Assembly: GCF_963675165.1 (NCBI RefSeq)
Contig: NC_087386.1
Span: forward strand, 2,358,169-2,422,168
Direction of reading: 5' to 3'
Length of the DNA stretch: 64,000 nucleotides
Origin: Halichondria panicea
Lineage: Eukaryota > Porifera > Demospongiae > Suberitida > Halichondriidae
Below the pieces are notes generated by a model. It did not search any database. It was not told the DNA's origin and saw only the letters and a program-made list of their open reading frames with translations. Positions within the stretch are counted from its first letter, which is position 1. Each line of letters begins with the position of its first letter. Made by a program: the position numbers and the translations under genes. Shown in pieces: positions 24,620 through 64,000 of this stretch.

Positions 24620-27600
24620 ATGGCTGAATCTACAACACTGAATGCTGCTAGTTCCCCACAGTTGATGGAGGATGGACTGACTGATTCTGATAGGGTATGA
24701 TATTCACATGATAGATAGATACTCAATGATCAGTGCATTCTCCTAGTGCCTAGATGTACTTGTTGACCACCCATAAACACACTTGGCATCATTCATTCAT
24801 CAAAGTATAGTGCCTACACTCTACCCTGTCAGTGTGAGGTGTTTTATCTCATGTTGTTGTTCTCTCCACATGTACCACTCTCTCTGGATGGACAACAGTA
24901 TTGGATTAAGGTACGTTGTGTGCAATCACATTCTACCAAGCTGACATGCTTGTGCTCTGAGCACTTGTTGTTAGGAGGTAGACAGTGTAAAGAAGAGCAC
25001 ATACGGATAACTGAATGTGATACTATTCCTTAATTGAGACAAGTAGATCTACTCGTAGTATAGCCTCCTTCACCGGCCTTCATAGAAAAGAAGGCCTGCT
25101 ATCGACTGCTTGCGCATGCGCCAAATTATTGGATATATTTTCCCGTAAAATTTCCTATAATACTGGATTTATCAGAGAAAATATCCTAAAAGTCATACAC
25201 AGAGCTATATAGCTAGCTAGCTAGAGACAGAGCTGTGTAGGTTTGTTGTACAGCTATTTTCTTTTGATAGAATCAGTAGCAGTAGTATAGTAGACTTTCA
25301 CCAAAGTTAGTGTTAAATGGGCGTGGCCTGTCCATATAGGCTCTTGTCAGCTTTCACTCCGTTCAGACGATCGTCATCCACACTGTTACAGGCTGTGAGT
25401 CTTTGTTAACATAGCAGGCTAAGGGTAGCTATCAGAGAATGCTATCAGATGGGCTAGAAACTCAATCAAACTTTCTATCTACTTCCTTCAATCCACTTTC
25501 GTTCGTTGTGATGTCACAGTTTTACTGAGCATATACGATGTTATCCAAAGCCCCCAGATACCGGGGGGATATTAGCGCATCCCTAAGTGAAGTGGGAAGT
25601 GCGGCCTGGGATCGAGGCTACTCGTAGTAGTACCTGAAAGTATGCATGGTTAATCAAGTGTTTCAGTCTGCATGTTTGGCTGTTAACAATTGTTTCCCCT
25701 CTCCTGTGTCATGCAATCACCAGTGTACTGTATCACTGCACTAATGTTCTCTTCCTTCCATTTCATGCATCTCCACCTCACCTTTGACTGACCCTCTGAA
25801 ACAACAGAATGTAAGTTGGTGTGTGTGTGTTGTCAGAGTATTTAGTGTCTGTTGCATATTCTGTGATGTTTCTACTTCCCCATTATTACTCTTGTGTGTG
25901 TGCAGTGCCATAGTGTTATATAGGGAAATATTTAGTATGATCACATTCAACCTCGTAATCATTCATTTACTATCTTCCCACTGTTTGCCCTGTGGACTCT
26001 CCCTCTCTGGATCAACAGTGTGTAAGTTGTGTTTGCACGTGCACACTCATTTTAATGGTTACTAGGAACTCGTAAATTATCTTTGTCTCTTTCCATATTG
26101 TCAACTTGGTATTAGCCGAGGCCCACACAACTTATTAGGTTGTAGTTTTAATATTCGTAGAATATACACCTAAGTTCATTAGTTGGTACGTACATTATCG
26201 TGTTTGTCTCTTCCCATGCACACACTCATTCCTATGTTGGACCACATACTGATTTGGACTATTGTAGGAGGTGAGCTTCTTACGAGTACTCAATGTCCAC
26301 ACACTAAAATGGTTCAGCTGCAATGTGTACGGATGTACTGGTTACCTAGCATCATTAGCGTGTGTCCCTTGTCCTCTAGAGCTGACCCTCTCCCTCGTAT
26401 AGGGTAGACCACGGCTTTAAACTTGTTCAATTCGTAATCCCATTTTACGGCCACAAGTTCGAAATACCACCATTGTGTACATTGTGTACATGTGAATTTG
26501 TGTTTATGTAAATTCCCCAACCAATTAAGTGCCTACTGAACCTAAAACTTGTTGCCTATTTCTCAATATTTCCCCAACTTTTTTATTTCTTAGCTTTTCT
26601 ATGCCAGGTCTAGCCACTTGTTGCTATGTGTAGTCAGTCCCATACACACCAGCGTTCAACTGATCTGATGTCTTGTATGATGTGTTAAGATTAAATCTCT
26701 CCCTCACATGTACAGTAGCCCTCATATAAAAGTTCCCGTTCCGTACCGTTCAATTTGCGTACAACGGTTCGCGTAGAAACGGAATGAAAACGGAAGCCAG
26801 CTCATTAAAATTTAATACGGTACGGAAATAACCGTTTTAATTCTGAAATAACGTTCGCACGTGTAGCTGCATGATTTGCTCCGTAGCTAGCTGGCTAGTG
26901 TGTTCCAAGAAATCAAGCTGGTGAACTGTTCTACTAAACAAAGAATCCTCATCCTTCACAAACAGCTACGGAGCAAGTACAGAATCCCTAAGAAGCAAGG
27001 TCAAGGCGAGCTAGATCTAGTTAGAATAATTACTGACATTTAGTTTGAACATTTATATTTATAGCACTGTACATGAATTTGTTATTCTTCATTTGACATG
27101 ATGTTTTAATGATACAGGACATTGTATACGATAGTGTATAATTTATAATGAAGTGTTCAACAAAAGTAATAGTACAATCAGATCATAATATAATGTAGCT
27201 GTATCTAAGATTCCAGACTGAGAGATCCGGTTGACTTGCTACTACCAACTTTCTCATCTTCTTCCAGCCTTGCATGTAAGTTCTGCAGTATTCCCAGTGC
27301 TATTTGTATGCCCCTGGATTACACTAGAGAAGTTAGTACATTTGTAGCTTGCGCTTAGTACATACAGAATAAATAAAAATTATTATTGCTAACTCAGCAA
27401 ATTCCACCCGTTTTTTCTCCTAGAACGGTGTAGGTAATTACGGTGCGTTTATGAATAATACGCTACCGTTTAGTTAGCGTTTTCTGACTCCGTAAAAACG
27501 GGAACGTTACGTGCAACTGAAACGCAACGGGAACTTTTATATGAGGGCTACTGTACCATTTGATGTGTCTCAGACTGTCATTGAGGTATGTTGTGATTGT

Positions 27601-30600
27601 GTGTGTGTCTCGTGGTGTGCATGTGTTGTATTGTACGACAAACAAAATCATACGTATCAAAGTTGTACATGTAAGATGCTTGTTGTACCGTTTACCGTCC
27701 CTTCCACTGACCCACCCACTGACCCTTCCATTATCTGCTATTGCTAGTACTGAGTACCTGTGTGTGTACTAGCCAGTGTGTGTACTACCAGTGTTCATAT
27801 CACTCTCTCCTCACATGTACCCTCTGTGGACTGTTACTCAACAACAGGACGTGAGTTTATTGCATGTACATATAATGGCGTACTAGGCTGACTTGTATAC
27901 ATGTACTACTGCATGAAGGCAAAAAGAATAACTTGCGTGACTTTATTTAGGATTAGTACGTACTGAAAGTTTCATGCTGTACAGACGTTAGACTGGCGGC
28001 GATAGAGCGACTGGCAAACTGCCTATCAGTCACTTGTCTCAGCGGAAGTGTAATAGATCGTATGACACTACTGAACATGAATATCGTTATAGATAATGTG
28101 GTTAAATGTTGCTACGAGATTCAGCTACTATGGAATGCACTGAATCCCCTGAAGTGTAAGTGCGGTTACAATTACAGGGCTAATATGACGTTGAGCAATC
28201 TGATAGGCTGCAATGTTCGTTGCAGCTGAGACGAGTGACTGATAGGCAGTTTGCCAGTCCCTCGCGCTACGCACGCGAGGGGCTGTCGCCGCCAGTCTAT
28301 ACAGACGTGTACTTGCAATAATTGATGTATACATGTGTGAATGCATTCGTGTATTTGAACATGTTCATTTCTCTACATGTCCGTGTCCTACTGCTTGTTA
28401 ATGTGACTACTGCTAATGATTACTGGAACAACAGAATGTAAGTTACAGTATATACAGACATGTATGAATGCACTCACTGCTCCTACCATCATCCCCCTCT
28501 CTCTGTTTCCATGTGTGTCTGGCGCTGGTGTCTCATTGGACTAAACAGAAGGTGAGCGGGACACTGCATGACTTGTGACTGTACTTGTGTCAGTATTGTT
28601 TGAGTTGCATGAGTACATGTGTATTGGCATTCATAGTGTACAGGTTTGTGATTATATTCTTTTCTCTCTCCCTACATTTCCATGGTTACTGAATATCTGG
28701 AACGATAGAGAGTGAGTTAAACAATGTTGGCAAACATACCGTACACCTCATGTGGCTTCAGTTTGTAATAGTCTCATATCCTTACCTGACTCTAGTAGCT
28801 ATACTGGTTGCACCTATAGACAACTCATAGTGTGTGACCACAAACACACAGTCTAACTCACTGTTGTCTTGTTCACCTTGTCCAGGCGAAAGCTATGAAT
28901 GAGAGTTACCTGAAGAGACATGAGACGGTGAGTGTTGATAGTTGCACTTACTACTCTCGTGGTAAGAGTGGTACACGTAGTCTAGCAGAACGACAATGTG
29001 TGTACATGTACTGTCCATTGTATGATGAATGGTTGCTTTTTGTCTACCTTTTTTTAGGTATGATTTGTAAGTCCACTTTTACTGTTTGTCTGTGTGAGGT
29101 TATACCGTATAGCGGGTAAATATATAATTATGCTCGCCAAGTTTATTTAGGTTGGTGGTTGCTGATTTTTATATTTTGATAATTCGTACATTTGTATCAG
29201 CTGCATGTTCTATTTGGTGGAATTTTTCTTCAGTCGTATATAAATTCTTTACTCCCCCAGAGAAGAGCTGCCCTCCAACAGAGACTGTCTGGTGACATCA
29301 CTGACCAGGACCGGAGACAACTGCAGGGAGAGCTGGAGGAGGTGGAGGGGGAGATCAAGGAGTGTGTCTCAATGATACAAGAGTATGAGAAGAGTATACA
29401 TCACAATTATAAGTATATTGCTGAGAGACGAGTAAGAGGAGAGAAGAGGCAGAGAGAGGAAGGTGAGGGGAGCAAGGAACTTTATAGTACAGTGAGTGTT
29501 GATGCTCATAGTTGCAATCACTCGTACCTGTAGCAACTTACATGTAGTGTGTTATTAGTAGACTGTACCTACAGCTGTTGTGAGGTCCTCATACTTTATA
29601 TAATCGTGTTATTGCAAAAGCGTTGGCTCCACCCACAACATTTTCGTTCGCCTATCACATGTGTTGTGTTGCTAGGCAACTGCCCCTGATTGTGCACACT
29701 ACAGTGTACTAGAGCATTGTTCCTGTTACTACTCTACACACTGTGGTGGTATGGATATGGTTTATTGGAATACCAACTTTCAATGATTTGGGTTCGTGAC
29801 GTTGTACTGTGTTACTTAATTATGACAGCATCATGTTAATTCAAGCATAGCACACTCCTGTAGTGATCAGCCACATCATTATTACCCAGTACATGTATTC
29901 CCTGTCATTGGTGGGTCACCCACTTAGCAAGCTTTAAAGGTTTACGATTTAAAGGTGGTTTATGTTCAGCTGCTTCATGTCCTTCATTTCCACTGGCACT
30001 TCATTGGCTTCTTACGTATACGCACAGCTGCTGTGTCCAGTTAGATCCATTTTAAAGCAGTTACCATATATACCGCAAAATTTTCGAGGGGCTATATTTT
30101 CGCTGATTTCATGGGTTAGCAATCCACGAAAATTGTACCAATTATCTGCTATAACATGCAAAGATTAAAGGCATGGCTTGTGGTAAGCGGTCAACCCACA
30201 AACATTGTGCAACGAAATGCTTTAGAGGCCATTCCACGAAATATAACTGCCTCGAAAATTTCGCACTATAAGGTATTATGTACATGTATATACCATACGT
30301 ATGTAATCATGTTCTTATCAACTATTTGCTCCACCCACCACCTTTTTAAGCTTGCGTTGCTAGGCAACTGACTGTATTGTACAGTTTAGGCAGACTAGCA
30401 ATCATTTTATGAGCCCGAGGGCGAGTTGCATAAAACATGATGCTATTGTTATGTGTTTTATATACCTCACCAAATTATGCTTTAAGGCGACGTGATCGGA
30501 CTGTATGACTTTATACATACTTGTTGCCTTTATATTGTTTACATGTTTTCCAGACCTCAATGTAATGTTCATTCCATTGTTCATTCCCCCACCCACTCAC

Positions 30601-40210: not shown

Positions 40211-41307
40211 GGGGTGAGTGTGTGTGTGTGTGTGTGTGTGTGGGGGGGGTGAGTGGGTGTGAGAGGAAGGACATTCTGTACTATATATAACAGTGGTAGC
40301 AACACTGAATTGAAACAGTACACACACAAGAAACAGCAAGTGCTGGTGTTGCCCAGCTGTGCATGTCCAATGCTGACACAGGAAAAAGCATGACCTTATA
40401 ATTAAGTCTACAAAATATGGATGGCAGATATAAATACGTACCAAACTCAATGAAGTGGTACGGTCCACTGGCCTTGTGTACATCGTTGCCATGTTGCTCA
40501 CTGAAGTCTTTGTGTAGATTCTCGAGGTAGTTAAAGGCCAGCTTGGCAGGATAGGTGAGGTCACACAGGGCGAGGTAGCATATCCCCTCCTCAAGAATGT
40601 AGCTATGTGGGGGGTCCATGTTAGTGTGTGTGCTTCAAGCTCAAAGTCATCGCCCCTCATCCACCATTAAACTGGAGTATAATACCACCAACCAAGTTCC
40701 AACTATTCTTAGACTACATGTACACTGGTAGTTCCTTGTTAGACAATCACTATAGAGGGACCTATGTATAACACACACCACTTACAATGTGTATGGTACA
40801 GTTAAGCAAATGCTCACAAACAAAAGGCCATCCATTGCATCAGTTTATACCATGACAGAGCACCAATCATCATACACACCACGAGGCAATAATGACATTC
40901 ACAGGAGAGTGCTTACTGGAACACCATACGACCCGGGTCACACTCGATTGAGCATCGAGGGGGGCTGACTGACGACAGCTTGCGGAATATCTGCTTGGCC
41001 TTGGGTTGGTATTCAGCATAATCCCGGCCAGACTGCAGAGGGAGAATGCAACAATTCAGTTAATTCAAGCTGTTAAGATAGCACACACTACACACGTATT
41101 ATTCTAGCAAGCTTCTCTTTATATGTCTACAGAATCATGACTTGACAACTATTCATGTCACTGAGCTGCATACAGTACAGTGTCCTGATGGGACCAATGC
41201 AGACTGTACTGTATTATCTACTGTAGCTCCTCTACCTCTTCATTGACAATGGATGAGGACAGAGGTAGTCCATCACTGGCTCTGGCAATTAGTGTCAGGT
41301 GGGCCAT
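40121..41307 (-). CDS. SEC22: SEC22-like longin-only protein, copy 2
   Basis: The exons are 41307-41236, 41032-40917, 40602-40442 and 40173-40121, the same sizes and phases as copy 1 and again 133 codons. Changes from copy 1 include LPLSSSI for LPLSASI, CYLALCDLT for CYLPLCDPT, KASGPYHF for KASRPYHF and, in the tail, DKAGKLVYHSRARG. The SNARE helix and membrane anchor are absent. The (GT)n array just before the last exon (about 40180-40245) is longer than in copy 1. The TAATG stop/start overlap with SRD5A3 is kept. Confidence 0.7.
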
Positions 41308-41515: not shown

Positions 41516-44500
41516 ATGGCTGAATCTACAACACTGAATGCTGCTAGTTCCCCACAATTGATGGAGGATGGGCTCACTGATTTGGATAGGGTATGATATT
41601 CACATGATAGATAGATACTCAATGATCAGTGCATTCTCCTAGTGTCTAGATGTACTTGTTGACCACCCATAAACACACTTGGCATCATTCATTCATCACA
41701 GTATAGTGCCTACACTCTCTACCCTGTCAGTGGGAGGTGTTTTATCTCATGTTGTTATTCTCTCCACATGTACCACTCTCTCTGGATGGACAACAGGGAT
41801 GGATTAAGGTACGTTGTGTGCAATCACATTCTACCAAGCTGACATGCTTGTGCTCTGAGCACTTGTTGTTAGGAGGTAGACAGTATAAAGAAGAGCACAT
41901 ACGGATAACTGAATGTGATACTATTCCTTAATTGAGACAAGTAGATCTACTCGTAGTATAGCCTCCTTCACCGGCCTTCATAGAAAAGAAGGCCTGCTAT
42001 CGACTGCTTGCGCATGCGCCAAATTATTGGATATTTTTCACCGTAAAATTTCCTATAATACTGGATTCATCAGAGAAAATATCCTAAAAGTCATACACAG
42101 AGCTATATAGCTAGCTAGCTAGAGACAGAGCTGTGTATGTTTGTTGTACAGCTATTTTCTTCTGATAGAATCAGTAGCAGTAGTATAGTAGACTTTCACC
42201 AAAGTTAGTGTTAAATGGGCGTGGCCTGTCCATATAGGTTCTTGTCAGCTTTCACTCCGTTCCGACGATCGTCATCCACACTGTTGCAGGCTGTGAGTCT
42301 TTTGTTAACATAGCAGGCTAAGGGTAGCTATCAGAGAATGCTATCAGATGGGCTAGAAACTCAATCGAACTTTCTATCTACTTCCTTCAATCCACTTTCG
42401 TTCGTTGTGATGTCACAGTTTTACTGAGCATATACGATGTTATCCAAAGCCCCCAGATACCCGGGGGATATTAGCGCATGTGCAAGCAGTCGATACCAGG
42501 CCCACTTCCCTAAGTGAAGTGGGAAGTGCGGCCTGGGATCGAGGCTACTCGTAGTAGTACCTGAAGTATGCATGGTTAATCAAGTGTTTCAGTCTGCATG
42601 TTTGGCTGTCCACAATTGTTTCCCCTCCCCTGTGTCATGCAATCACCAGTGTACTGTATCACTGCACTAATGTTCTCTTCCTTCCATTTCATGAATCTCC
42701 ACCTCACCTTTGACCGACCCTCTGAAACAACAGGATGTAAGTTGGTGTGTGTTGTCACAGAGTATTTAGTGTCTGTTGCATATTCTGTGATGTTTCTACT
42801 TCCCCATTATTACTCTTGTGTGTGTGCAGTGCCATAGTGTTATATAGGGAAATATTTAGTATGATCACATTCAACCTCGTAATCATTCATTTACTATCTT
42901 CCCACTGTTTGCCCTGTGGACTCTCCCTCTTTGGATCAACAGCTTGTAAGTTGTGTTTGCACGTGCACACTCATTTTAATTGTTACTATAGGAACTCGTA
43001 AATTATCTTTGTCTCTTTCCATATTGTCAACTTGGTATTAGCCGAGGCCCACACAACTTATTAGGTTGTACTTTTAATATTCGTAGAATATACACCTAAG
43101 TTCATTAGTTGGTACGTACATTATCGTGTTTGTCTCTTCCCATGCACACACTCATTCCTATGTTGGACCACACACTGATTTGGACTACTGTAGGAGGTGA
43201 GCTTCTTACGAGTACTCAATGTCCACACACTAAAATGGTTCAGCTGCAATGTGTACGGATGTACTGGTTACCTAGCATCATTAGCGTGTGTCCCTTGTCC
43301 TCTAGAGCTGACCCTCTCCCTCGTATAGGGTAGACCACGGCTTTAAACTTGTTCAATTCGTAATCCCATTTTACGGGCACAAGTTCGAAATACCACCATT
43401 GTGTACATTGTGTACATGTAAATTTGTGTTTATGTAAATTCCCCAACCAATTAAGTGCCCTACTGAACCTAAAACTTGTTGCCTATTTCTCAATGTTTCC
43501 CCAACTTTTTTATTTTTTAGCTTTTCTTACCATGTCTAGCCACTTGTTGCTATGTGTAGTCAGTCCCATACACACCAGCGTTCAACTGATCTGATGTCTT
43601 GTATGTGTGTTAAGATTAAATCTCTCCCTCACATGTACCATTTGATGTGTCTCAGGATCAGATTAAGGTATGTTGTGATTGTGTGTGTGTCTCATGGAGT
43701 GCATGTATTGTATTGTACGACAAACAAAATCATACGTATCAAAGTTGTACATGTAAGATGCTTGTTGTACCGTTTACCGTCCCTTCCACTGACCCACCCA
43801 CTGACCCTTCCATTATCTGCTATTGCTAGTACTGAGTACCTGTGTGTGTACTAGCCAGTGTGTGTACTACCAGTGTTCATATCACTCTCTCCTCACATGT
43901 ACCCTCTGTGGACTGTTACTCAACAACAGATGGTGAGTTTATTGCATGTACATATAATGGCGTACTAGGCTGACTTGTATACATGTACTACTGCATGAAG
44001 GCAGAAAGAATAACTTGCGTGACTTTATTTAGGATTAGTACGTACTGAAAGTTTCATGCTGTACAGACGTGTACTTGCAATCATTGATGTATACATGTGT
44101 GAATGCATTCGTGTATTTGAACATGTTCATTTCTCTACATGTCCGTGTCCTACTGCTTGTTAATGTGACTACTGCTAATGATTACTGGAATAACAGAATG
44201 TAAGTTACAGTATGCAGACATGTATGAATGCACTCACTGCTCCTACCATCATCCCCCTCTCTCTGTTTCCATGTGTGTCTTACGCTTGTGTCTCATTGGA
44301 CTAAACAGAAGGTGAGCAGGACACTGCACTGACTTGTGACTGTACTTGTGTCAGTATTGTTTGAGTTGCATGAGTACATGTGTATTGGCATTCATAGTGT
44401 ACAGGTTTGTGATTATATTCTTTTCTCTCTCCCTACATTTCCATGGTTACTGAATATCTGGAACGATAGGAAGTGAGTCAAACAATGTTGGCAAACATAC

Positions 44501-47500
44501 CGTACACCTCATATGCATTCAGTTTGTAATAGTCTCGTATCCTTACCAGACTCTAGTAGCTATACTGGTTGCTCCTATAGACAACTCATAATGTGTGACC
44601 ACAAACACACAGTCTAACCTCTTGTCTTGTTCACCTTGTCCAGAGGAAGGTTAGGAATGAGAGGCAACTGAAGATTTATGAGAAGGTGAGTGTTGACAGT
44701 TGCACTTACTACTCTCGTGGTAAGAGTGGTACACGTAGTCTAGCAGAACGACAATGTGTGTACATGTACTGTCCATTGTATGATGAATGGTTGCTTTTTG
44801 TCTACCTTTTTTTAGGTATGATTTGTAAGTTCACTTTTACTGTTTGTCTGTGTGAGGTTATACCGTATAGCGGGTAAATATGATAATATGATATGCTCGC
44901 CAAATTTATTTAGGTTGGTGGTTGCTGATTTTTATATTTTGATAATTTGTACATTTGTATCAGCTGCATGTTCTATTTGGTGGAATTTTTCTTCAGTCGT
45001 ATATAAATTCTTTACTCCCCCAGAGAAGAGCTGCCCTCCAACAGAGACTGTCTGGTGACATCACTGACCAGGACCGGAGACAACTGCAGGGAGAGCTGGA
45101 GGAGGTGGAGGGGGAGATCAAGAAGTGTGTCTCAGGCATACAACGATGTGAGGGGAACATACATATGTGTGAGAATAAGATTGCTAGGATACGAGGAGAA
45201 GGAGAGGAGAGGCGGAGAAAGGAAGGTGAGGGGAGCAAGGAACTTTATAGTACAGTGAGTGTTGATGCTCATAGTTGCAATCACTCGTACCTGTAGCAAC
45301 TTACATGTAGTGTGTTATTAGTAGACTGTACCTACAGCTGTTGTGAGGTCCTCATACTTTATATAATCATGTATTGCAAAAGCGTTGGCTCCACCCACAA
45401 CCTTTTCGTTCGCCTATCACATTTGTTGTGTTGCTAGGCAACTGCCCCTGATTGTGCACACTACAGTGTACTAGAGCATTGTTCCTGTTACTACTCTACA
45501 CACTGTGGTGGCATGGATATGGTTTATTGGACAATCTAGACTTTATTAATACCAACTTTCAATGATTTAACCCTAACCCTAACCCTATATAGGTAGACTC
45601 CTAGGCCTGGTATTGATTGTATCTTGGCATGGTTGGAATTCGCTCAAACGAGCAAATTCCTAAGCGATTAAATACTATTAGCAAGCTAGCTAGCTAGCTA
45701 CCTGTGACTCGACTATGGGTACTTCAGTTCTGGATTTTGATGGACAAGGGGAGCGCTGGTCCTACCAAGCTTGTAGTCCATCAAAAATGATAACAACTGG
45801 TAGCAAAGAGATATCCCATACCCTGTTAGGAACCACACACACACCTCCGTTCCCTTAGACAGGAGCTTGAGGGCCTATTCCTTCAAGAGAGTAAGGCTTC
45901 TTGCTTCGTACAGGGCATTTATAAGCTATTGCTCCATCGAAATCCTTAATCGCTTAGGAATTCGCTCGTTTGAGCGAATTCCAACCACGCCCAAATACAA
46001 TCAATACCATGCCTAGGCCTATATAACGTTCAATTGGAGACGGATCGGCCTAGGAGTCTACCTAGCGTTCAATTAAATTGGAGACAGATCGGCCTGGGAA
46101 CGAGGCTAGTAGTCCAGTTGCCTTTCCACTGACACTTTATTGGCTAGGCAACTGACTTTTTTAACATGTACGTAGTACAGTTTAGGCATACTAAACTAAG
46201 CATCATTCCTTTTGCTACTCTACATGGACACTGTTTATTGAACATTGTAGTAATATACTGTAGGACTGAACATATATAGCTGATGCCCATCGTGTTCTAA
46301 TCGCGTTATCGGTATTATCCTTGCAAACATGCATTTTATGACATACAGGCAGAAGCCCGAGTGACGATCGAGTGCGATGATTATATATTATTATGTGTTT
46401 TATATCACGATGACCCCTTACCAATTTATGCCTTGAGGCTACGCAACGGTGTAATTAAATAACACAGAAGAGCTTTCTTGTTGCTTTGGCAATTCTATAT
46501 ATTCACATGTTTTCCCCACCCCAATGTACATTGTTCGTATATCCCTCTACTGTACATGTGGTTGTTGTTAGCATTACATACACCACATATACACATTAGA
46601 ATCGAAGCTATCAGCAAAGCGGTTGTTTGATGAGGCGATGAAGCACGGACACGTCTCGGTCAACATTGTCAACATGCTTGTGTTTGGACCTGCGGGAACA
46701 GGGAAGACCAACCTCAAGCACCTGCTAACTGACAAGCCCCCTCCACTACAGCGAGACAGCACTCCTTGTATGGAAAAGCCAGTACGCATTCGACCCGTGT
46801 CCAACACGAAATTCAAGACAACTAGTACTGGAAGAGGCTGGAAAGAGATGTCTCAGCCAAAGATGCTCAATCTACTAGCTCAAATCATTGCCAAGTTACC
46901 AAAAGAAAGCACCGATCACCTAGTTGGAAAAATCACTGATCGCTCCATGGCATCAAGGATTGTCAATGGCTTGAGGAACATGATGATGGCATTCAAGAGG
47001 ATGACCACAACCAAGACAACTTCTGGTTCCAAATTGAGCCCATCGACGAACGATTCCGATGAACTTTCTGGCTCTGCAAAAATGTTGGACAAAGCCATTG
47101 ATGAAGTGATAGCGAGTGTAGTGAGTGGTGTGGCAGAAGAGCTGAAGCCAGCCACACAGGGAACTGACCAACTGTCGAGCAGTGACCAGCAAGAAGGAGA
47201 ACTGTTTGATTCCAACTGGGTGTATGTTACCGACTGCGGCGGCCAGCCGCAATTCCACGACGTCAGCCCTCTCTTCATCAAGCACATTTCGGTGGCGTTG
47301 ATAGTCTTGCGTTTGATTGACGAACTCTCCAGTTTCCCTTCTGACGAGTACTACAAGGATGGGCAGCTTGTTGGTAGTCCTCATGCATCTCACATGACGC
47401 TCGGGGAGACACTTCAGAGTCTCATTCGATCCATTGAGTCCCATACCTCACAAGACAAGAAGCCGAAGATGATCTTTGTGGGCACATTCTTTGATCAGCT

Positions 47501-50323
47501 GAAGAGCTCGAATACACTTATCAAGAGGAATAAAGAGATTCTCGACATGCTGCCACCCGATATCAAGAAGCTATTGGTGTACGAAAATCTTGGATTGAAC
47601 AATCTGATTTTTGGTCTCAACACAATCAGCCGAGAAGAAGATTCACTGGCCACTGCCAATAGGATTAGAATTGCTATTGAGGACTCTATTCCGCTACAAG
47701 TCAAAATGCCCATCTGGTGGTCCTTCTTGGATTCACTTCTCCAGAGTTTATCTGCCAGTCTCGAGCGAGGTGTACTAGGCATTGAAGAATGTCTCCAATT
47801 AGCCACTCGATTTGGTTATTTGCTCAAAGATCTTGAAGCTGCTCTGGTCTTCTTTGACAACGTGTGTATAGCGCACTACTATCCCTCCATTCTCCCCAAC
47901 ACAGTGTTTGTGGATGCCCAGATTCCACTAGACAAGATCACCGAGCTCTCACAGCACGCCATCTCCCTGAGGACTGCAAGCTCTACTGTTAGCCCAGGAG
48001 GGACAGGCGCCGAATGGAAGAGATTTCGAGACGAGGGCATAATCACTTTAAAGTTTCTACGATTCTTCAATAAGTATTACGTTGAAGGCATATTTTCTCC
48101 AGAAGATATGCTGTTGATCATGAAAGATCTTCTTGTGATTGCTCCCATTCCTCTAGTGGAAGCCACTCCCCACCAAGCCGAGTTCTTCATGCCATCTCTA
48201 CTCACATCGATCCCACCTGCTGAGCTAGACAAGATTCGTTCCTCCTTCACAACATCACCCCTCGCTGTCTACTTTCGTAGTGGGTGTATTCGCTCTGGAG
48301 TATTTTGCTGTCTAGTTGTGGACGTGATCAAGAGGCTGGGCTGGAAAGTTTTGCTTCCCTCAGGGGAAGCAAACATTTTAGCTAAAAATTGTATCCAGCT
48401 AGAAATCCCCAATCTCCCGTGCACCGTGGTTCTGATCGACTCCTTCTCGTATCTTGAAGTGTATATCGATGTGCTTTTTGCTCTTCGCAAACAAGTATGC
48501 CCTACAATTCGAAACGAAATTTTGATCAGCATTAAATCATCGTTTGAAATGTTGCATTACAACAACGACACACCCGAGACAGCCATCTTTTGCCCATGCA
48601 GCAAGAAAAGCACTGGAAGCAAATTGCACCTTGCCGATGTCAGTGAACGGAATGGCTGTAAGTTTTGGAAGTGTTCCCTTCAGACACGTGTGTGGGGAGA
48701 GCTCAGTGATGAAGATAGAATCTGGTTGGACGATAGCGAAGGTTCTGGTGAGTATAGTGATTTTTTAAATGTGAAATTTACCTTTTGTTTCTTCTATTAG
48801 GTGAATCATCCTCTGCTACTGGAGGTACTTGTACGAAGACTGAGAGAAAGAGTGATCAGCAGCAATACTCCGGTAAGTTCATAGCAGTGTTATATATTAT
48901 AGGGATATCATTAAGTGAAACAATAATTATTAACTATCGTTGGTTTAATGTGCATGTTGTTGTTTTATGAATTCCTCTTGTTTTGTTCAGTCCATCAATG
49001 TGGGACTCTGGCCAATGTTGTTAGTAGCACTGGATCTAGAATGAGTGATCAACAGCCTTGTTTGAGTGAGCATGTTAATTGACAAACGTACTACATTAGC
49101 GTAACTGCTGTGTCTGCTTTTCCTCAGGTAATTCTGTAATGGAAGATGTGTGCTTGAAGACGGAAGTACATGATCATGATCAGCGAGATACTTCTAGTAA
49201 GCTTTATTTTGTAGTTTTTTTGTTTTTAAACTGTTTCCTCCTCAGACAAATCATCTCCTGCAATGGAACATGTGCTCAATGATCAACATGCCAGTAAGAA
49301 AATGTCGTTTGGTCAATGTATTTTGAAAGTTTCCCGGGCCTGATGAAAATTTAATGTTTTATGTTTCTTTTCTTTTCAGGTGAATTGTCCTCTGTTATAG
49401 TAATGGAAGATGTGTGTAAGAAGACTGGAGTGAGGGACCAACAACTAGATCAAGAAATCCCTGAGAGTGACATCATTCTAATCGCGGAGAAATTTCCACA
49501 CCTGCTGAGCGTGCACAAGGTAGGCAGTACTCTAATTCATATACTGTACGCACTTACATAATTATCATTTTTACATTTGGTAAGGGGATTGAGCATATTG
49601 TTCACCCGAACCCCTCAATTGTATTCCCTTTTGAGTTTCCTCTAGAAGGTATTTACAAGGGGCAACCCTCACCAAATTAAACCCTGGTTGATTGTTGGTT
49701 TTGTACAGGCTTTGACAATTAATGATCTGCAACATGTTTACGAGAAACTACACACTGCACATGCAAGTGCCAGCCCTCACTGGTTCAATCTGGGATTGGC
49801 TCTAGGTCTCAGTCATCCTGTTCTCACCAATATCAATAGTGATAACCGTGAAAAGAATTTGTTGTGCTTTCGTGAAATGTTGGCTGAGCTCCTGAGTACA
49901 CAACATGTAACATGGAGTCTCCTTTCAGACGCTCTCAAAAAGCCCACAGTGGATCTCATCAATTTGGCTGATAGCATCACAGGTAACCATTTTTAGTGTT
50001 TGCGCACTTGTTTATTAGCTTTTAGACTATCATGTTTTAGTGATGCTGTTTTTCTTCATGCAGTCAATCAATCCACAACTCCTAACCTGCTCGATCGACT
50101 CAACCTCACCCCAGCCGACCTCGGTGATGTAACTGAAGTCACACGTCGTTATGGCAATCAAGCTGGAGTGGCTCATGCATTGGGAGCGTGGCGAAGAGTG
50201 AATCCTTCCAGAGCTACCTTCAGGGCCTTGGTGGAAATTACCATAGGACTGAGAAGAGGAGACACTGCTACAGACATTTGTAGATTCATTGTAGACAATA
50301 CAAGTGGAACTGACCGAAACTGA
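41516..50323 (+). CDS. Microexon-built Roc-COR GTPase with two death-fold domains, copy 2
   Basis: Exons are 41516-41590, 41797-41808, 42734-42736, 42943-42945, 43194-43196, 43656-43667, 43930-43932, 44197-44199, 44309-44311, 44470-44472, 44644-44685, 45024-45225, 46600-48747, 48801-48872, 49128-49196, 49246-49293, 49380-49519, 49709-49982 and 50064-50323. The total is 3,375 nt with no stop, giving 1,124 residues. P-loop GPAGTGKT, DCGGQPQF and VGTFFDQ are kept. Against copy 1, introns and most of the GTPase exon are nearly identical. The microexons, exon 11, the second half of the coiled-coil exon, the insert between P-loop and DCGGQ, and the end of the COR-like region all differ strongly, and the length differences are multiples of three. 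Exon 13 has three extra residues (LSA) near its start. Confidence 0.85.
41797..44472 (+). other. Microexon array, copy 2
   Basis: The exons are GGATGGATTAAG, GAT, CTT, GAG, GATCAGATTAAG, ATG, AAT, AAG and GAA, encoding GWIK-D-L-E-DQIK-M-N-K-E. Splice sites and about 100-150 bp on either side are nearly unchanged from copy 1, so the exon bases are the main place where the copies differ. Confidence 0.8.
41959..42547. mobile_element. MITE with 9-bp target duplication, unit 2
   Basis: This is the same insertion as 25061-25620, with the complete second inner arm (GTGCAAGCAGTCGATACCAG). Confidence 0.85.
45226..46599. other. Long intron before the GTPase exon, copy 2
   Basis: This intron has an insertion at about 45568-46100. 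It starts with three TAACCC units (45568-45585), followed by an inverted-repeat element (about 45590-46023) with arms GGAATTCGCTCAAACGAGCA and its near reverse complement, and GCCTGGTATTGATTGTAT / ATACAATCAATACCATGCC. Near 46035-46095 are two copies of GTTCAATTGGAGAC / GTTCAATTAAATTGGAGAC followed by GATCGGCCT. No exon is supported. Confidence 0.75.
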
Positions 50324-51553: not shown

Positions 51554-52401
51554 TAGTTAATTTCCACCAGAGGCTCCTCTCTTACCTTGACTTCCTTCCC
51601 CTATATCTGAATCAGTACAATACACTATAGGAGAGGAAGCTGTACTCCAACTGTACTGTACATGGTAGTCTGTTACTATTAAAGGGGCAGGAGCAATCTC
51701 CCCCTCCACCAATGTACATGTGTCTGTCCCCTCAGGTAATTGGTTCGGTTGATGAGTTTTCCTCGGCTTTACAAAAAGTCATAACAGACATTAGCTTCGA
51801 CAGTGACTTGGTGGTGTCTGTGTTTGAGACCAACATACGTGTGCTAGGTGGTTTACTGGGAGGTCACTTTGCTGCCCTGGCTCTCAAAGAGAAGGGCTAC
51901 CATCAGTTGGCTTGGTATGATGGGGGGCTGCTCAGAATGGCAGTGGAAGTGGGGAACAGACTACTGCCTGCTTTCAACACCACCACAGGTCTCCCCTATC
52001 CAAAGGTGACTGCTCTGTACTCTGAAAAATAGCCAATAGAGAATACAGTACAAAATTTTATACCAAATTTGAAACTGGTCTTAGTCCTAAGTGTACAGTA
52101 TGTGGATAATACAACCTGTACATATGTAGAAAGTGCTTTATTATAGGCAAATCTCTGTTGCAAATGCACTCCAATCTACTGTACTGTGCAAACTTGCCAA
52201 CAGAAAATACAGTCCATTCTGTACTAAAATTGAAACTGGTAGATAATACAACCGTTACATGTGCTGTATTATATTGTGCCTCTCCTCAGATCAACCTTCG
52301 CCACGGTATGGGCTACCCTAACATGGAGAAGACAACGTGCACGGCATGTGCTGGGTCCATGATCCTTGAGTTTGCTGCCCTCAGTAGACTAACAGGTGCA
52401 G

Positions 52402-59652: not shown

Positions 59653-62600
59653 ATGGCTGAATCTACAACCCTGAATGCTGCTAGTTCCCCACAGTTAATC
59701 ACTGATGAGGTCGAGGTATGATATTCACATGATAGACAGATACTCAATGATCAGTGCATTCTCCTAGTGCCTAGATGTACTTGTTGACCACCCATAAACA
59801 CACTTGGCATCATTCATTCATCACAGTATAGTGCCTACACTCTACCCTGTCAGTGTGAGGTGTTTTATCTCATGTTGTTGTTCTCTCCACATGTACCACT
59901 CTCTCTGGATGGACAACAGTGGATGATTGAGGTACGTTGTGTGCAATCACATTCTACCAAGCTGACATGCTTGTGCTCTGAGCACTTGTTGTTAGGAGGT
60001 AGACAGTGTAAAGAAGAGCACATACGGATAACTGAATGTGATACTATTCCTTAATTGAGACAAGTAGATCTACTCGTAGTATAGCCTCCTTCACCGGCCT
60101 TCATAGGAAAGAAGGCCTGCTATCGACTGCTTGCGCATGCGCCAAATTATTGGATATTTTTTCCCGTAAAATTTCCTATAACACTGGATTCATCAGAGAA
60201 AATATCCTAAAAGTCATACACAGAGCTATATAGCTAGCTAGCTAGAGACAGAGCTGTGTAGGTTTGTTGTACAGCTATTTTCTTTTGATACAATCAGTAG
60301 CAGTAGTATAGTAGACTTTCACCAAAGTTAGTGTTAAATGGGCGTGGCCTGTCCATATAGGCTCTTGTCAGCCTTCACTCCGTTCAGACGATCGTCATCC
60401 ACACTGTTGCAGGCTGTGAGTCTTTTGTTAACATAGCAGGCTAAGGGTAGCTATCAGAGAATGCTATCAGATGGGCTAGCAACTCAATCGAACTTTCTAT
60501 CTACTTCCTTCAATCCACTTTCGTTCCTTGTGATGTCACAGTTTTACTGAGCATATACGATGTTATCCAAAGCCCCCAGATACCGGGGGGATATTAGCGC
60601 ATGCGCAAGCAGTCGATACCAGGCCCACTTCCCTGAGTGAAGTGGGAAGTGCGGCCTGGGATCGAGGCTACTCGTAGTAGTACCTGAAAGTATGCATGGA
60701 TAATCAAGTGTTTCAGTCTGCATGTTTGGCTGTCAACAATTGTTTCCCCTCCCCTGTGTTATGCAATCACCACTGTACTGTATCACTGCACTAATGTTCT
60801 CTTCCTTCCATTTCATGCATCTCCACCTCACCTTTGACTGACCCTCTGAAACAACAGCGTGTAAGTTGGTGTGTGTTGTCAGAGCATTTAGTGTCTGTTG
60901 CATATTCTGTGATGTTTCTGCTTCCCCATTATTACTCTTGTGTGTGTGCAGTGCCATAGTGTTATATAGGGAAATATTTAGTATGATCACATTCAACCTC
61001 GTAATCATTCATTTACTATCTTCCCACGTGTTTGCCCTGTGGACTCTCCCTCTCTGGATCAACAGCATGTAAGTTGTATTTGCACGTGCACACTCATTTT
61101 AATGGTTACTAGGAACTCGTAAATTATCTTTGTCTCTTTCCATATTGCCAACTTGGTATTAGCCGAGGCCCACACAACTTATTAGGTTGTAGTTTTAATA
61201 TTCGTAGAATATACACCTAAGTTCATTAGTTGGTACGTACATTATCGTGTTTGTCTCTTCCCATGCACACACTCATTCCTATGTTGGACCACACACTGAT
61301 TTGGACTACTGTAGGAGGTGAGCTTCTTACGAGTACTCAATGTCCACACACTGAAATGGTTCAGCTGCAATGTGTACGGATGTACTGGTTATCTAGCATC
61401 ATTAGCGTGTGTCCCTTGTCCTCTAGAGCTGACCCTCTCCCTCGTATAGGGTAGACCACGGCTTTAAACTTGTTCAATTCGTAATCCCATTTTACGTGCA
61501 CAAGTTCGAAATACCACCATTGTGTACATTGTGTACATGTAAATTTGTGTTTATGTAAATTCCCCAACCAATTAAGTGCCTACTGAACCTAAAACTTGTT
61601 GCCTATTTCTCAATGTTTCCCCAACTTTTTTATTTCTTAGTTTTCTATACCAGGTTTAGCCACTTGTTGCTATGTGTAGTCAGTCCCATACACACCAGCG
61701 TTCAACTGATCTGATGTCTTGTATGTGTGTTAAGATTAAATCTCTCCCTCACATGTACCATTTGATGTGTCTCAGACTCTCATTGAGGTATGTTGTGATT
61801 GTGTGTGTGTCTCATGGAATGCAGGTGTTGTATTGTACGACAAACAAAATCATACGTATCAAAGTTGTACATGTAAGATGCTTGTTGTACCGTTTACCGT
61901 CCCTTCCACTGACCCACCCACTGACCCTTCCATTATCTGCTATTGCTAGTACCGAGTACCTGTGTGTGTACTAGCCAGTGTGTGTACTACCAGTGTGTTC
62001 ATATCCTCTCTCCTCACATGTACCCTCTGTGGACTGTTACTCAACAACAGAGCGTGAGTTTATTGCATGTACATATAATGGTGTACTAGGCTGACTTGTA
62101 TACATGTACTACTGCATGAAGGCAGAAAGAATAACTTGCGTGGCTTTATTTAGGATTAGTACGTACTGAAAGTTTCATGCTGTACAGACGTGTACTTGCA
62201 ATAATTGATGTATACATGTGTGAATGCATTTGTGTATTTGAACATGTTCATTTCTCTACATGTCCGTGTCCTACTGCTTGTTTATGTGACTACTGCTAAT
62301 GATTACTGGAACAACAGTATGTAAGTTACAGTATGCAGACATGTATGAATGCACTCACTGCTCCTACCATCATCCCCCTCTCTCTGTTTCCATGTGTGTC
62401 TCACGCTGGTGTCTCATTGGACTAAACAGAAGGTGAGCGGGACACTGCACTGACTTGTGACTGTACTTGTGTCAGTATTGTTTGAGTTGCATGAGTACAT
62501 GTGTATTGGCATTCATAGTGTACAGGTTTGTGATTATATTCTTTTCTCTCTCCCTACATTTCCATGGTTACTGAATATCTGGAACGATAGGAAGTGAGTT

Positions 62601-64000
62601 AAACAATGTTGGCAAACATACCCTACACCTCATGTGCATTCAGTTTGTAATAGTCTCATATCCTTACCTGACTCTAGTAGCTATACTGGTTGCTCCTATA
62701 GACAACTCATAATGTGTGACCACAAACACACAGTCTAACCTCTTGTCTTGTTCACCTTGTCCAGAGGAAGGCTGGGTATGAGAGTGAACTGAAAAGTCAT
62801 GAGACGGTGAGTGTTGACATGTACAGTTGCACTTACTACTCTCGTGGTAAGAGTGGTACACGTAGTCTAGCTGAACGACAATGTGTGTACATGTACTGTC
62901 CATTGTATGATGAATGGTTGCTTTTTGTCTACCTTTGTGTATGTTTTATATGTCCACTTTTACTGTTTGACTGTGTGAGGTTATACCGTATAGCGGGTAA
63001 ATATAATAATTTTTATTATTATGATATTCTCGCCAAGATTGGTGGTTGCTGATTTTGATAATTTGTACATTTGTATCAGCTGCATGTTCTATTTAGTGAA
63101 ATGCTCATTCAGTCATATATAAAGTTTATAATAATATTTTTACTCCCCCAGAGAAGAGCTGCCCTCCAACAGAGACTGTCTGGTGACATCACTGACCAGG
63201 ACCGGAGACAACTGCAGGGAGAGCTGGAGGAGGTGGAGGGGAAGATCAAGCAGTGTGTCTCAGGGATACAAGCGTCTGAGAGGGATATACATCGCTATGA
63301 GAATGCTATTGCTGAGATACGAGGAGAAGCAGAGGAGAGGCAGAGAAAGGAAGGTGAGGGGAGCAAGGAACTTTATAGTACAGTGAGTGTTGATGCTCAT
63401 AGTTGCAATCACTCGTACGTACCTGTAGCAACTTACATGTAGTGTGTTATTAGTAGACTGTACCTACAGCTGTTGTGAGGTCCTCATACTTTATATAATC
63501 GTGTATTGCAAAAGCGTTTGCTCCACCCACAACATTTTCGTTCGCCTATCACATTTGTTGTGTTGCTAGGCAACTGCCCCTGATTGTGCACACTACAGTG
63601 TACTAGAGCATTGTTCCTGTTACAGTAGAACCTCGATTATCCGGACACCTTGGTTCCAGAAGCAGGCCGGATAAGTGAATATGCCGGATAATCGAATAGA
63701 TAAACCACGCCTTGATCCACCCACTTTATTGATGAACAGCAGTGCCACATGTTGTCTGCGCATGCGCAAAAGAAAAGCAGGCATGTCTCCATGGTAACAG
63801 CTGCAACGCGCATGCGCATTTGAGGGACATGCCCATTTTCTGAATATGTAATCTGATTAAAGAGAAAACTGCCAAGCCGGATAATCGAGGTTCCGGATAA
63901 TCGAGGGCCGGATAATCGAGGTTCTACTGTACTACTCTACACACTGTGGTGGTATGGATATGGTTTATTGGACTTTTTAATACCAACTTTCAATGATTTG
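59653..64000 (+). CDS. Microexon-built GTPase/death-domain gene, copy 3 (5' part, cut by window end)
   Basis: Visible exons are 59653-59715, 59920-59931, 60858-60860, 61066-61068, 61315-61317, 61776-61787, 62051-62053, 62318-62320, 62430-62432, 62591-62593, 62765-62806 and 63152-63353; the GTPase exon would lie beyond the edge. Exon 1 is 12 nt shorter than in the other copies and ends QLITDEVE instead of QLMEDGLTDSDR. Microexons encode WMIE-R-H-E-TLIE-S-Y-K-E. Exon 11 reads RKAGYESELKSHET. The coiled-coil exon starts with the invariant RRAALQQRLSGDITDQDRRQ and then diverges (QCVSGIQASERDIHRYENAI). All visible exons keep phase and are open. Whether the rest is intact cannot be seen. Confidence 0.8.
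59920..62593 (+). other. Microexon array, copy 3
   Basis: The exons are TGGATGATTGAG, CGT, CAT, GAG, ACTCTCATTGAG, AGC, TAT, AAG and GAA, with acceptors and donors as in copies 1 and 2. The GAG and AAG exons and the ATT (Ile) codons are invariant in all three copies; every other exon differs in at least one copy. Confidence 0.8.
60082..60670. mobile_element. MITE with 9-bp target duplication, unit 3
   Basis: This is the same old insertion as in units 1 and 2, with both inner arms (GCTTGCGCATGCGCC and GCGCATGCGCAAGC). Confidence 0.85.
63623..63929. mobile_element. Unit-3-specific Tigger/pogo-like MITE, TA target
   Basis: Inverted ends CAGTAGAACCTCGATTATCC and its reverse complement are flanked by TA (63621-63622, 63930-63931). 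Unit 1 has the empty site CCTGTTACTACTCTACAC. The right end has extra GCCGGATAATCGAGG repeats. 307 bp, in the intron before the GTPase exon. Confidence 0.9.

What the first reader, a model, noticed from the sequence alone, without database searches (positions are those of the whole stretch)
41797..44472. Microexons hypervariable while flanking introns are nearly identical
Across three copies the triplets read AAT/GAT/CGT, TGT/CTT/CAT, GAC/ATG/AGC and AAT/AAT/TAT, and the 12-mers also differ. Yet about 50-150 bp on each side show only isolated changes. For the GAC/ATG exon, copies 1 and 2 differ at all three bases, with about one change in the surrounding 150 bp. Exons changing faster than introns is the reverse of normal constraint and points to strong diversifying selection or targeted diversification of recognition residues.
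Basis: seen in the sequence. Interest (0 to 1): 0.95.

Follow-up and report, generated by a model that had tools for sequence, protein, structure and literature searches.

The report
Hypervariable one-codon exons in receptor-like genes
In a family of near-duplicate genes of an unnamed eukaryote, single-codon exons that line one face of a predicted protein helix differ from copy to copy while the introns around them are almost identical, which suggests a recognition surface under strong pressure to differ.

Summary
I aligned 26 copies of the module on contig C10 (plus 2 from C13). Introns differ by 2.2% per pair; positions 1-2 of eight microexon codons differ by 67%, near saturation, with no raised diversity in flanking bases. 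In the 23 complete copies microexon lengths never change, 0 of 966 splice-dinucleotide cells deviate (14 expected) and variable sites hold no stops (14.8 expected), so these look like real phase-0 exons. Each 12-mer plus three triplets spells one heptad. Variable residues fall mainly at c, d, f and g, one helix face, and the same register recurs in the next exon. Third bases rarely change unless the amino acid demands it, and neighbouring variable codons are unlinked. This fits recurrent amino-acid-level diversifying selection in genes whose introns are homogenised by gene conversion, better than a mutator aimed at DNA. Downstream lie a P-loop GTPase-like frame and a Death-like exon, both labels tentative. 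Truffle nank genes also have codon-sized microexons, so the kind has a precedent. No RNA or population data were available.

The parts
41516..41590 (+). copy 2 exon 1 (25 codons, MAESTTLNAASSPQLMEDGLTDLDR); the end is variable
   Evidence: first 17 codons pN/pS 0.19
41797..41808 (+). copy 2 12-nt exon 'a': heptad positions f,g,a,b (G W I K)
   Evidence: AG/GT and length kept in 23 of 23 complete copies; codons 1 and 2 have 13 codons each in 28 copies
42734..42736 (+). copy 2 triplet t1, heptad c
   Evidence: 13 codons for 13 amino acids in 28 copies; 42 exact genome matches, third base T in 41
42943..42945 (+). copy 2 triplet t2, heptad d
   Evidence: 9 codons for 9 amino acids in 28 copies
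43194..43196 (+). copy 2 triplet t3, heptad e, nearly invariant GAG
43656..43667 (+). copy 2 12-nt exon 'b': heptad f,g,a,b (D Q I K)
43930..43932 (+). copy 2 triplet t4, heptad c
   Evidence: 10 codons for 10 amino acids in 23 copies
44197..44199 (+). copy 2 triplet t5, heptad d
   Evidence: 9 codons for 9 amino acids in 24 copies
44309..44311 (+). copy 2 triplet t6, heptad e, invariant AAG in the copies that hold it
44470..44472 (+). copy 2 triplet t7, heptad f (GAA/AAA/AGA only)
44644..44685 (+). copy 2 42-nt exon, 14 codons (two heptads long)
   Evidence: pN/pS 1.94 in 21 copies
45024..45254 (+). copy 2 coiled-coil exon; second hypervariable heptad stretch about 45117-45191
   Evidence: pN/pS 2.16 in 15 copies; same heptad register
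46623..48800 (+). copy 2 long ORF: P-loop (GPAGTGKT), putative Roc/Ras-like GTPase
   Evidence: Roc below cut-off; 11 copies pS 0.149, pN 0.072
49712..49981 (+). copy 2 Death-domain-like exon
   Evidence: no Pfam hit itself; 38% identical to a locus L040 reading frame that scores Pfam Death E=9.3e-5
24620..29491 (+). copy 1 of the module: exon 1 24620; 12-mers 24899, 27574; triplets 25808, 26019, 26268, 27848, 28435, 28549, 28709; 42-mer 28886; coil exon 29261-29491
59653..63382 (+). copy 3 of the module: exon 1 59653; 12-mers 59920, 61776; triplets 60858, 61066, 61315, 62051, 62318, 62430, 62591; 42-mer 62765; coil exon 63152-63382

Best explanation
Shown from sequence: the window lies in a tandem family whose 5' half spells a heptad-repeat helix through 12-nt, 3-nt and 42-nt exons in one frame; the next exon spells a second heptad stretch. 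Residues at heptad c, d, g and part of f, one face of a helix, are hypervariable between copies. Position a is fixed or nearly so, e nearly fixed with one exception in the second stretch, b intermediate (often K/E). The introns are near-identical. Inferred: all microexons are spliced into one protein. That protein is an intracellular receptor or adaptor with an N-terminal hypervariable helical surface, a GTPase-like switch and a Death-type signalling part. The variable face binds diverse partners (pathogen, symbiont or self/non-self ligands), and copies are repeatedly selected to differ there. Gene conversion and duplication keep introns alike and spread the module, even beside a 43-44% identical GTPase type. 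The codon-sized exons are the inherited layout of that helix and need not themselves generate mutations.
For: Exon reality: 0 of 966 splice-dinucleotide cells deviate (14.3 expected at the intron rate), microexon lengths identical in 23 of 23 complete copies, expected stops 14.8 at eleven variable sites, observed 0 in 496 codons at 20 sites that include those eleven. Heptad: c,d,f,g against a,b,e, permutation p 5e-5 in helix 1 and 1e-4 in helix 2, best of 7 phases in both; removing any one triplet lowers the helical moment from 3.16 to 1.51-2.44. Selection on amino acids: 391 of 428 third bases kept where allowed; of 308 same-amino-acid pairs at eight codons 11 differ in codon, 3.6%, near the 2.2% intron background; 168 non-synonymous against 9 synonymous one-base pairs of distinct codons; ts/tv 0.52 against 1.81 in introns. 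Recurrence: 23 of 23 complete copies have distinct 8-residue strings and none of seven neighbouring codon pairs is associated, although intron SNPs within 30 bp have r2 0.47. Background: an intronic repeat insert has pi 0.026, like the introns, so introns look neutral and homogenised; the two C10 clusters are not differentiated. Effector under purifying selection: GTPase exon pN/pS 0.48 in 11 copies. Module beside two GTPase types: by adjacency of coordinates.
Against: No transcript or protein evidence. Nei-Gojobori pN/pS at the eight codons is only 1.93, with pS 0.329, far above the intron rate; I attribute this to forced third-base changes and multi-hit path counting, but it is a result against a simple picture. 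At 12a codon 1 the third base is not kept in 11 of 25 allowed cases, and at t4 in 5 of 21. t1, t2 and t7, 3 of 13 codons tested, show linkage to the flanking haplotype (p 0.002, 0.001, 0.011), so part of the sharing is by descent. Position f is low in the 42-mer (0.16, 0.24) and e reaches 0.52 at coil codon 50. Exon 1 is not a multiple of three in 2 of 23 complete copies (82 and 55 nt as aligned) and 2 of 11 GTPase frames hold stops, so some copies may be broken. GTPase and Death labels rest on weak matches. The structure job gave pLDDT 30 and says nothing.
Confidence: 0.72

Rival explanations
1. A mutator aimed at DNA, like a diversity-generating retroelement or a deaminase, hits these codons.
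For: Near-saturated positions 1-2 with a fixed third base (NNT at t1 in 41 of 42 places) resemble NNY patterns of randomised codons; adjacent codons vary independently.
Against: The third base does change when the amino acid needs it, for example TGG or ATG (67 of 495 codons); diversity at 3-15 bases from the exons equals the intron background; variable and fixed codons alternate by helix face within one 12-nt or 42-nt exon. No template repeat or reverse transcriptase was looked for.
Confidence: 0.12
2. Old balanced differences between copies are kept while gene conversion homogenises everything else.
For: Introns recombine among copies (mean r2 falls from 0.47 to 0.06 with distance; four-gamete pairs 13 of 121 within 30 bp, 347 of 711 beyond 1 kb) and C10 clusters are mixed.
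Against: Old codon alleles should have gathered synonymous third-base changes: t1, t2, t4 and t5 show 0 codon differences in 160 same-amino-acid pairs. Neighbouring variable codons 3 bp apart are unlinked.
Confidence: 0.13
3. The triplets are optional cassettes, and diversity is made mainly by alternative splicing, as reported for truffle nank genes.
For: All microexons are multiples of three in one frame, so any can be skipped in frame; skipping a whole 3-triplet set disturbs the register least (2.87 and 2.75 against 3.16).
Against: Skipping any one triplet breaks the helical phase that the downstream exon shares; diversity is already in the genomic copies. No RNA to test it.
Confidence: 0.15
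4. Chance AG-NNN-GT motifs in neutral intron, not exons.
For: Some chance motifs exist (5.0 expected in the window).
Against: Hypervariability, conserved splice sites, fixed lengths, no stops and heptad register all coincide at these triplets.
Confidence: 0.02

Closest known systems
nank (NACHT-ANK) family of the truffle Tuber melanosporum, Iotti et al. 2012 (not seen; known to me from passages of PMC4986451 and PMC3689799)
   Same: Expanded family of receptor-like NTPase genes with 'tens of codon-sized microexons' used for diversification
   Different: Those passages describe alternative splicing in a fungal NACHT-ankyrin protein. Here the diversity is between genomic copies in a heptad helix with a GTPase-like and a Death-like part; no NACHT or ankyrin match in the five stretches scanned
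Podospora HNWD/HET type fungal NLRs (PMC4986451 passages)
   Same: Repeat domain with hypervariable positions under positive selection, concerted evolution, family members with different N-terminal domains
   Different: WD/ANK/TPR repeats; the passages read mention codon-sized exons only for the truffle family
Schistosome micro-exon genes (PMC4350168 passages)
   Same: Most of the coding region in very small symmetrical exons; dN/dS above 1 in a few
   Different: Those are found in secretions and glands and vary by splicing; their exons are larger than 3 nt as far as I recall; here no signal peptide is apparent by eye
RPS24 3-bp microexon in human (PMC11162997 passages)
   Same: A 3-bp exon next to other microexons (18 and 22 bp) is spliced in animals
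   Different: One 3-bp exon in a ribosomal protein gene; hypervariability is not a topic of the passages read
Venom phospholipase A2 and similar toxin genes with introns more conserved than exons (recalled only; searches listed no paper)
   Same: Exons evolving faster than introns
   Different: Ordinary-sized exons, as I recall; no codon-by-codon split

Membership tests
microexon (3 to about 30 nt internal exon) | length, consensus splice sites, frame kept | tested here: met
microexon (3 to about 30 nt internal exon) | present in spliced RNA | not testable with these tools
   no RNA data
NLR (NACHT or NB-ARC plus LRR) | NACHT/NB-ARC and LRR domains | tested here: not met
   Pfam: no NACHT, NB-ARC or LRR match in the five stretches scanned; NB-LRR (PF12061) E 0.084, below cut-off
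Roc/Roco GTPase | Roc and COR domains | tested here: inconclusive
   Roc E 0.069 and 0.15, below curated cut-off; Rab-like stretch E 0.09-0.83
Death-domain protein | Death domain | tested here: inconclusive
   window exon has no Pfam hit; 38% identity to a frame scoring PF00531 22.9 bits, cut-off 22.6
truffle nank | codon-sized microexons in an expanded receptor-like family | tested here: met
   for this family; truffle side from passages
truffle nank | NACHT plus ankyrin repeats | tested here: not met
diversity-generating retroelement target | reverse transcriptase and template repeat nearby | not tested
   no search made
diversity-generating retroelement target | only template adenines altered, so NNY codons keep their third base (feature recalled) | tested here: not met
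   67 forced and 37 unforced third-base departures of 495 codons
schistosome micro-exon gene | small symmetrical exons | tested here: met
schistosome micro-exon gene | secreted, signal peptide | not tested
   only read by eye

The most novel reading that the evidence does not exclude
One-codon exons set in long near-identical introns form a germline diversity system. Each recognition residue is isolated in its own exon, so recombination and gene conversion between copies can move single residues independently. A GTPase-Death receptor family thereby builds a combinatorial repertoire on one helical face, shared across different effectors.
Probability: 0.2. Interest if true: 0.95.

Novelty: new variant of a known kind. 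Interest (0 to 1): 0.86.

Why it matters
If the exons are spliced as inferred, each complete gene carries seven one-codon exons and two four-codon exons, at dozens of loci (42 exact t1 matches), and the residues under selection are visible codon by codon against a near-neutral intron background. It would give a natural map of a recognition surface, a test bed for how very short exons are spliced, and a candidate immune or self-recognition repertoire in a eukaryote that may be an animal (taxon not tested). Gene predictors would be expected to miss such exons.

Tried and rejected
Structure prediction of the GTPase exon with two window copies gave pLDDT 30 and was not used further. A duplication origin of the microexons was only weakly supported: some upstream intron flanks resemble each other (12b-t4 z 8.6, 12a-t4 z 5.9 against shuffles), while the best blastn hit in that test was an overlap of my own two queries. 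A chance-motif explanation was rejected. Linkage of codons to flanks was tested and is partial: 3 of 13 at p below 0.05. Searches of PubMed Central. None listed a paper that, by title or abstract start, is on hypervariable 3-nt exons in an animal gene family; that is a statement about those ten searches only.

Errors of mine, corrected: exon 1 was taken one base too long (fixed); one GTPase locus was counted twice (12 rows, 11 loci; one search is the corrected value); a label says 16 codons where 15 were used.

Full report
What is there. The window is part of contig C10 (2,358,169-2,422,168) of an unnamed eukaryote genome of 131 Mb in 39 contigs. It carries three copies of one module, with exon 1 at 24620, 41516 and 59653. 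In copy 2 the chain is exon 1 (41516-41590), 12-mer a, t1, t2, t3, 12-mer b, t4, t5, t6, t7, a 42-mer, and a 231-nt coiled-coil exon (45024-45254). It is followed by a 2.2-kb P-loop reading frame and a Death-like exon. All exons of the chain are phase 0 in the three window copies. The concatenated product of copy 2 begins MAESTTLNAASSPQLMEDGLTDLDR-GWIK-D-L-E-DQIK-M-N-K-E-RKVRNERQLKIYEK.

Data used. A DNA search listed further copies on C10 in two stretches, about 340-750 kb and 2.24-2.52 Mb. I extracted 26 C10 copies and later 2 from C13. At least 42 places in the genome match the t1 site exactly, 27 on C10 and 15 on C13, so the 28 aligned copies are a part of the family. Of the 28, 23 hold all eight hypervariable codons; 21 of these are on C10. 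Four C10 copies end after t3 (2256699, 2450947, L033, L034) and one lacks t3 to t4 (2292773); these were left out wherever complete copies were needed.

The contrast. In 26 C10 copies mean pairwise diversity is 0.0218 in the introns, 0.0263 in an intronic repeat insert, 0.0266 just 5' of exon 1, and 0.0225 in conserved microexon codons. It is 0.674 at positions 1-2 of eight codons (12a codons 1-2, t1, t2, 12b codons 1-2, t4, t5) and 0.370 at their third positions. No circular shift of the exon mask, of 3052, was as variable; the best reached 0.329 against 0.356. Around these exons diversity is 0.003 at 1-2 bases (the splice dinucleotides), 0.018 at 3-6, 0.024 at 7-15 and 0.018-0.019 beyond, so there is no shoulder. 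In the six closest pairs of 210, with 0.9-1.3% intron difference, 6 to 8 of the 8 codons differ; over all pairs the median is 7 and the minimum 4.

They behave as exons. In 23 complete copies none of 966 splice-dinucleotide cells deviates, against 14.3 expected at the intron rate, and microexon lengths never change. At eleven variable sites (277 codons) base frequencies predict 14.8 stops; none occurs in 496 codons at 20 sites that include these. The motif YAG-NNN-GTRAGY is five-fold over expectation in the window, 26 against 5.0. Exon 1 varies in length; in 2 of 23 copies it is not a multiple of three as aligned.

They form a helix face. With 12-mers as f-g-a-b and triplets as c, d, e, residue diversity in helix 1 is high at c (0.72-0.90), d (0.44-0.88) and g (0.60-0.92). 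It is mixed at f (0.16-0.86) and b (0.16-0.53), and low at a (0-0.09) and e (0-0.23). The next exon has invariant isoleucines at codons 32, 39, 46 and 53. With these set to a, its variable residues again fall mainly at c, d, f and g, though e reaches 0.52 and b 0.49 at one codon each (permutation p 5e-5 for helix 1, 1e-4 for helix 2; the register was fixed after seeing the isoleucines). Leaving out any single triplet spoils the phase; leaving out a whole 3-triplet set does so far less. This is indirect evidence that the microexons are used together.

Selection or mutation. At t1, 13 codons encode 13 amino acids; at t2, t4 and t5 it is 9 for 9, 10 for 10 and 9 for 9. Over 23 variable sites in both helices the usual third base is kept in 391 of 428 codons where the amino acid allows it; 67 further codons change it because they must. 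The 37 exceptions are most frequent at 12a codon 1 (11), coil codon 41 (6), t4 (5) and coil codon 45 (4). Nei-Gojobori pN/pS is 1.93 for the eight codons, 1.94 for the 42-mer (21 copies each), 2.16 for the coil exon (15 copies) and 0.19 for exon 1 codons 1-17. It is 0.48 for the GTPase exon (11 copies). The high nominal pS of the eight codons (0.329) counts against a naive reading; direct counting of same-amino-acid pairs gives 11 of 308 with different codons. Neighbouring variable codons are not associated in 7 of 7 tests, even 3 bp apart, while intron SNPs within 30 bp have r2 0.47. That speaks for independent recurrent change at each codon, though t1, t2 and t7 retain some linkage to their flanks.

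Homogenisation and module exchange. Intron LD decays from r2 0.47 to 0.06 over 3 kb, and the two C10 clusters are as different within as between (0.023, 0.021, 0.023). Synonymous diversity in the GTPase exon is 0.149 in 11 copies, about seven-fold above the introns of the 5' module in 26 copies, so the 5' module is the more homogenised part. On C13, four module copies (5833901, 5765348, 5588284, 6027869) lie beside GTPase exons only 43-44% identical to the window's. Others, most of them at similar module identity (93-96%), lie beside 78-86% ones; one near 5,007,000 has a module of 81-84%. Two more distant family members, on C6 and C14, show no microexon chain in the 7.5 kb read upstream.

Function. 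Effector labels are tentative: the long frame has a P-loop and sub-threshold Roc/Ras matches. The window's Death-like exon matches no Pfam family itself, but is 38% identical to a frame near another paralogue that just passes the Pfam Death cut-off. From the layout I infer an intracellular recognition-plus-signalling protein; this is inference.

Known relatives. The closest precedent is the truffle nank family with tens of codon-sized microexons, seen only as passages in two papers. Fungal NLRs show a similar evolutionary logic, with variable repeat positions and concerted evolution (passages). A human 3-bp exon exists in RPS24 (passages). I therefore rate this a new variant of a known kind; what appears new is one-codon exons holding residues hypervariable between genomic copies on a heptad face, at dozens of loci.

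Noticed in passing
window 41955-42548 and the matching intron of copies 1 and 3: A repeat insert of about 590 bp sits in the intron after 12-mer a; its columns are held by 12-14 of 26 copies, and 94-96% identical pieces lie on many other contigs. A CAG-GCT-GTGAGT motif at 42287 lies in it, with counterparts at 25389 and 60410.
   Followed up: partly
window 40281-40616 (-) and 51712-52029 (+): The neighbourhood also carries pieces matching Longin (a SEC22-like guess, recalled) and glycosyl hydrolase family 47; similar ORFs recur near the other copies.
   Followed up: partly
C10:2256699, C10:2450947, L033, L034: Four copies stop after the first heptad unit; L033 has a frameshift in exon 1 and C10:2450947 lost the acceptor AG of 12-mer a, so these may be decaying.
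   Followed up: partly
t2 in L029, L032, L034, L036: All four copies with TGG at t2 share an unusual donor gttagt instead of gtaagt, suggesting one origin spread among copies.
   Followed up: no
C13:5829305, 5760735, 5584155, 6023263: A second GTPase type, 43-44% identical, lies beside the same microexon module.
   Followed up: partly
window about 45570-45590: Short run of CCCTAA-type telomere-like repeats inside an intron.
   Followed up: no
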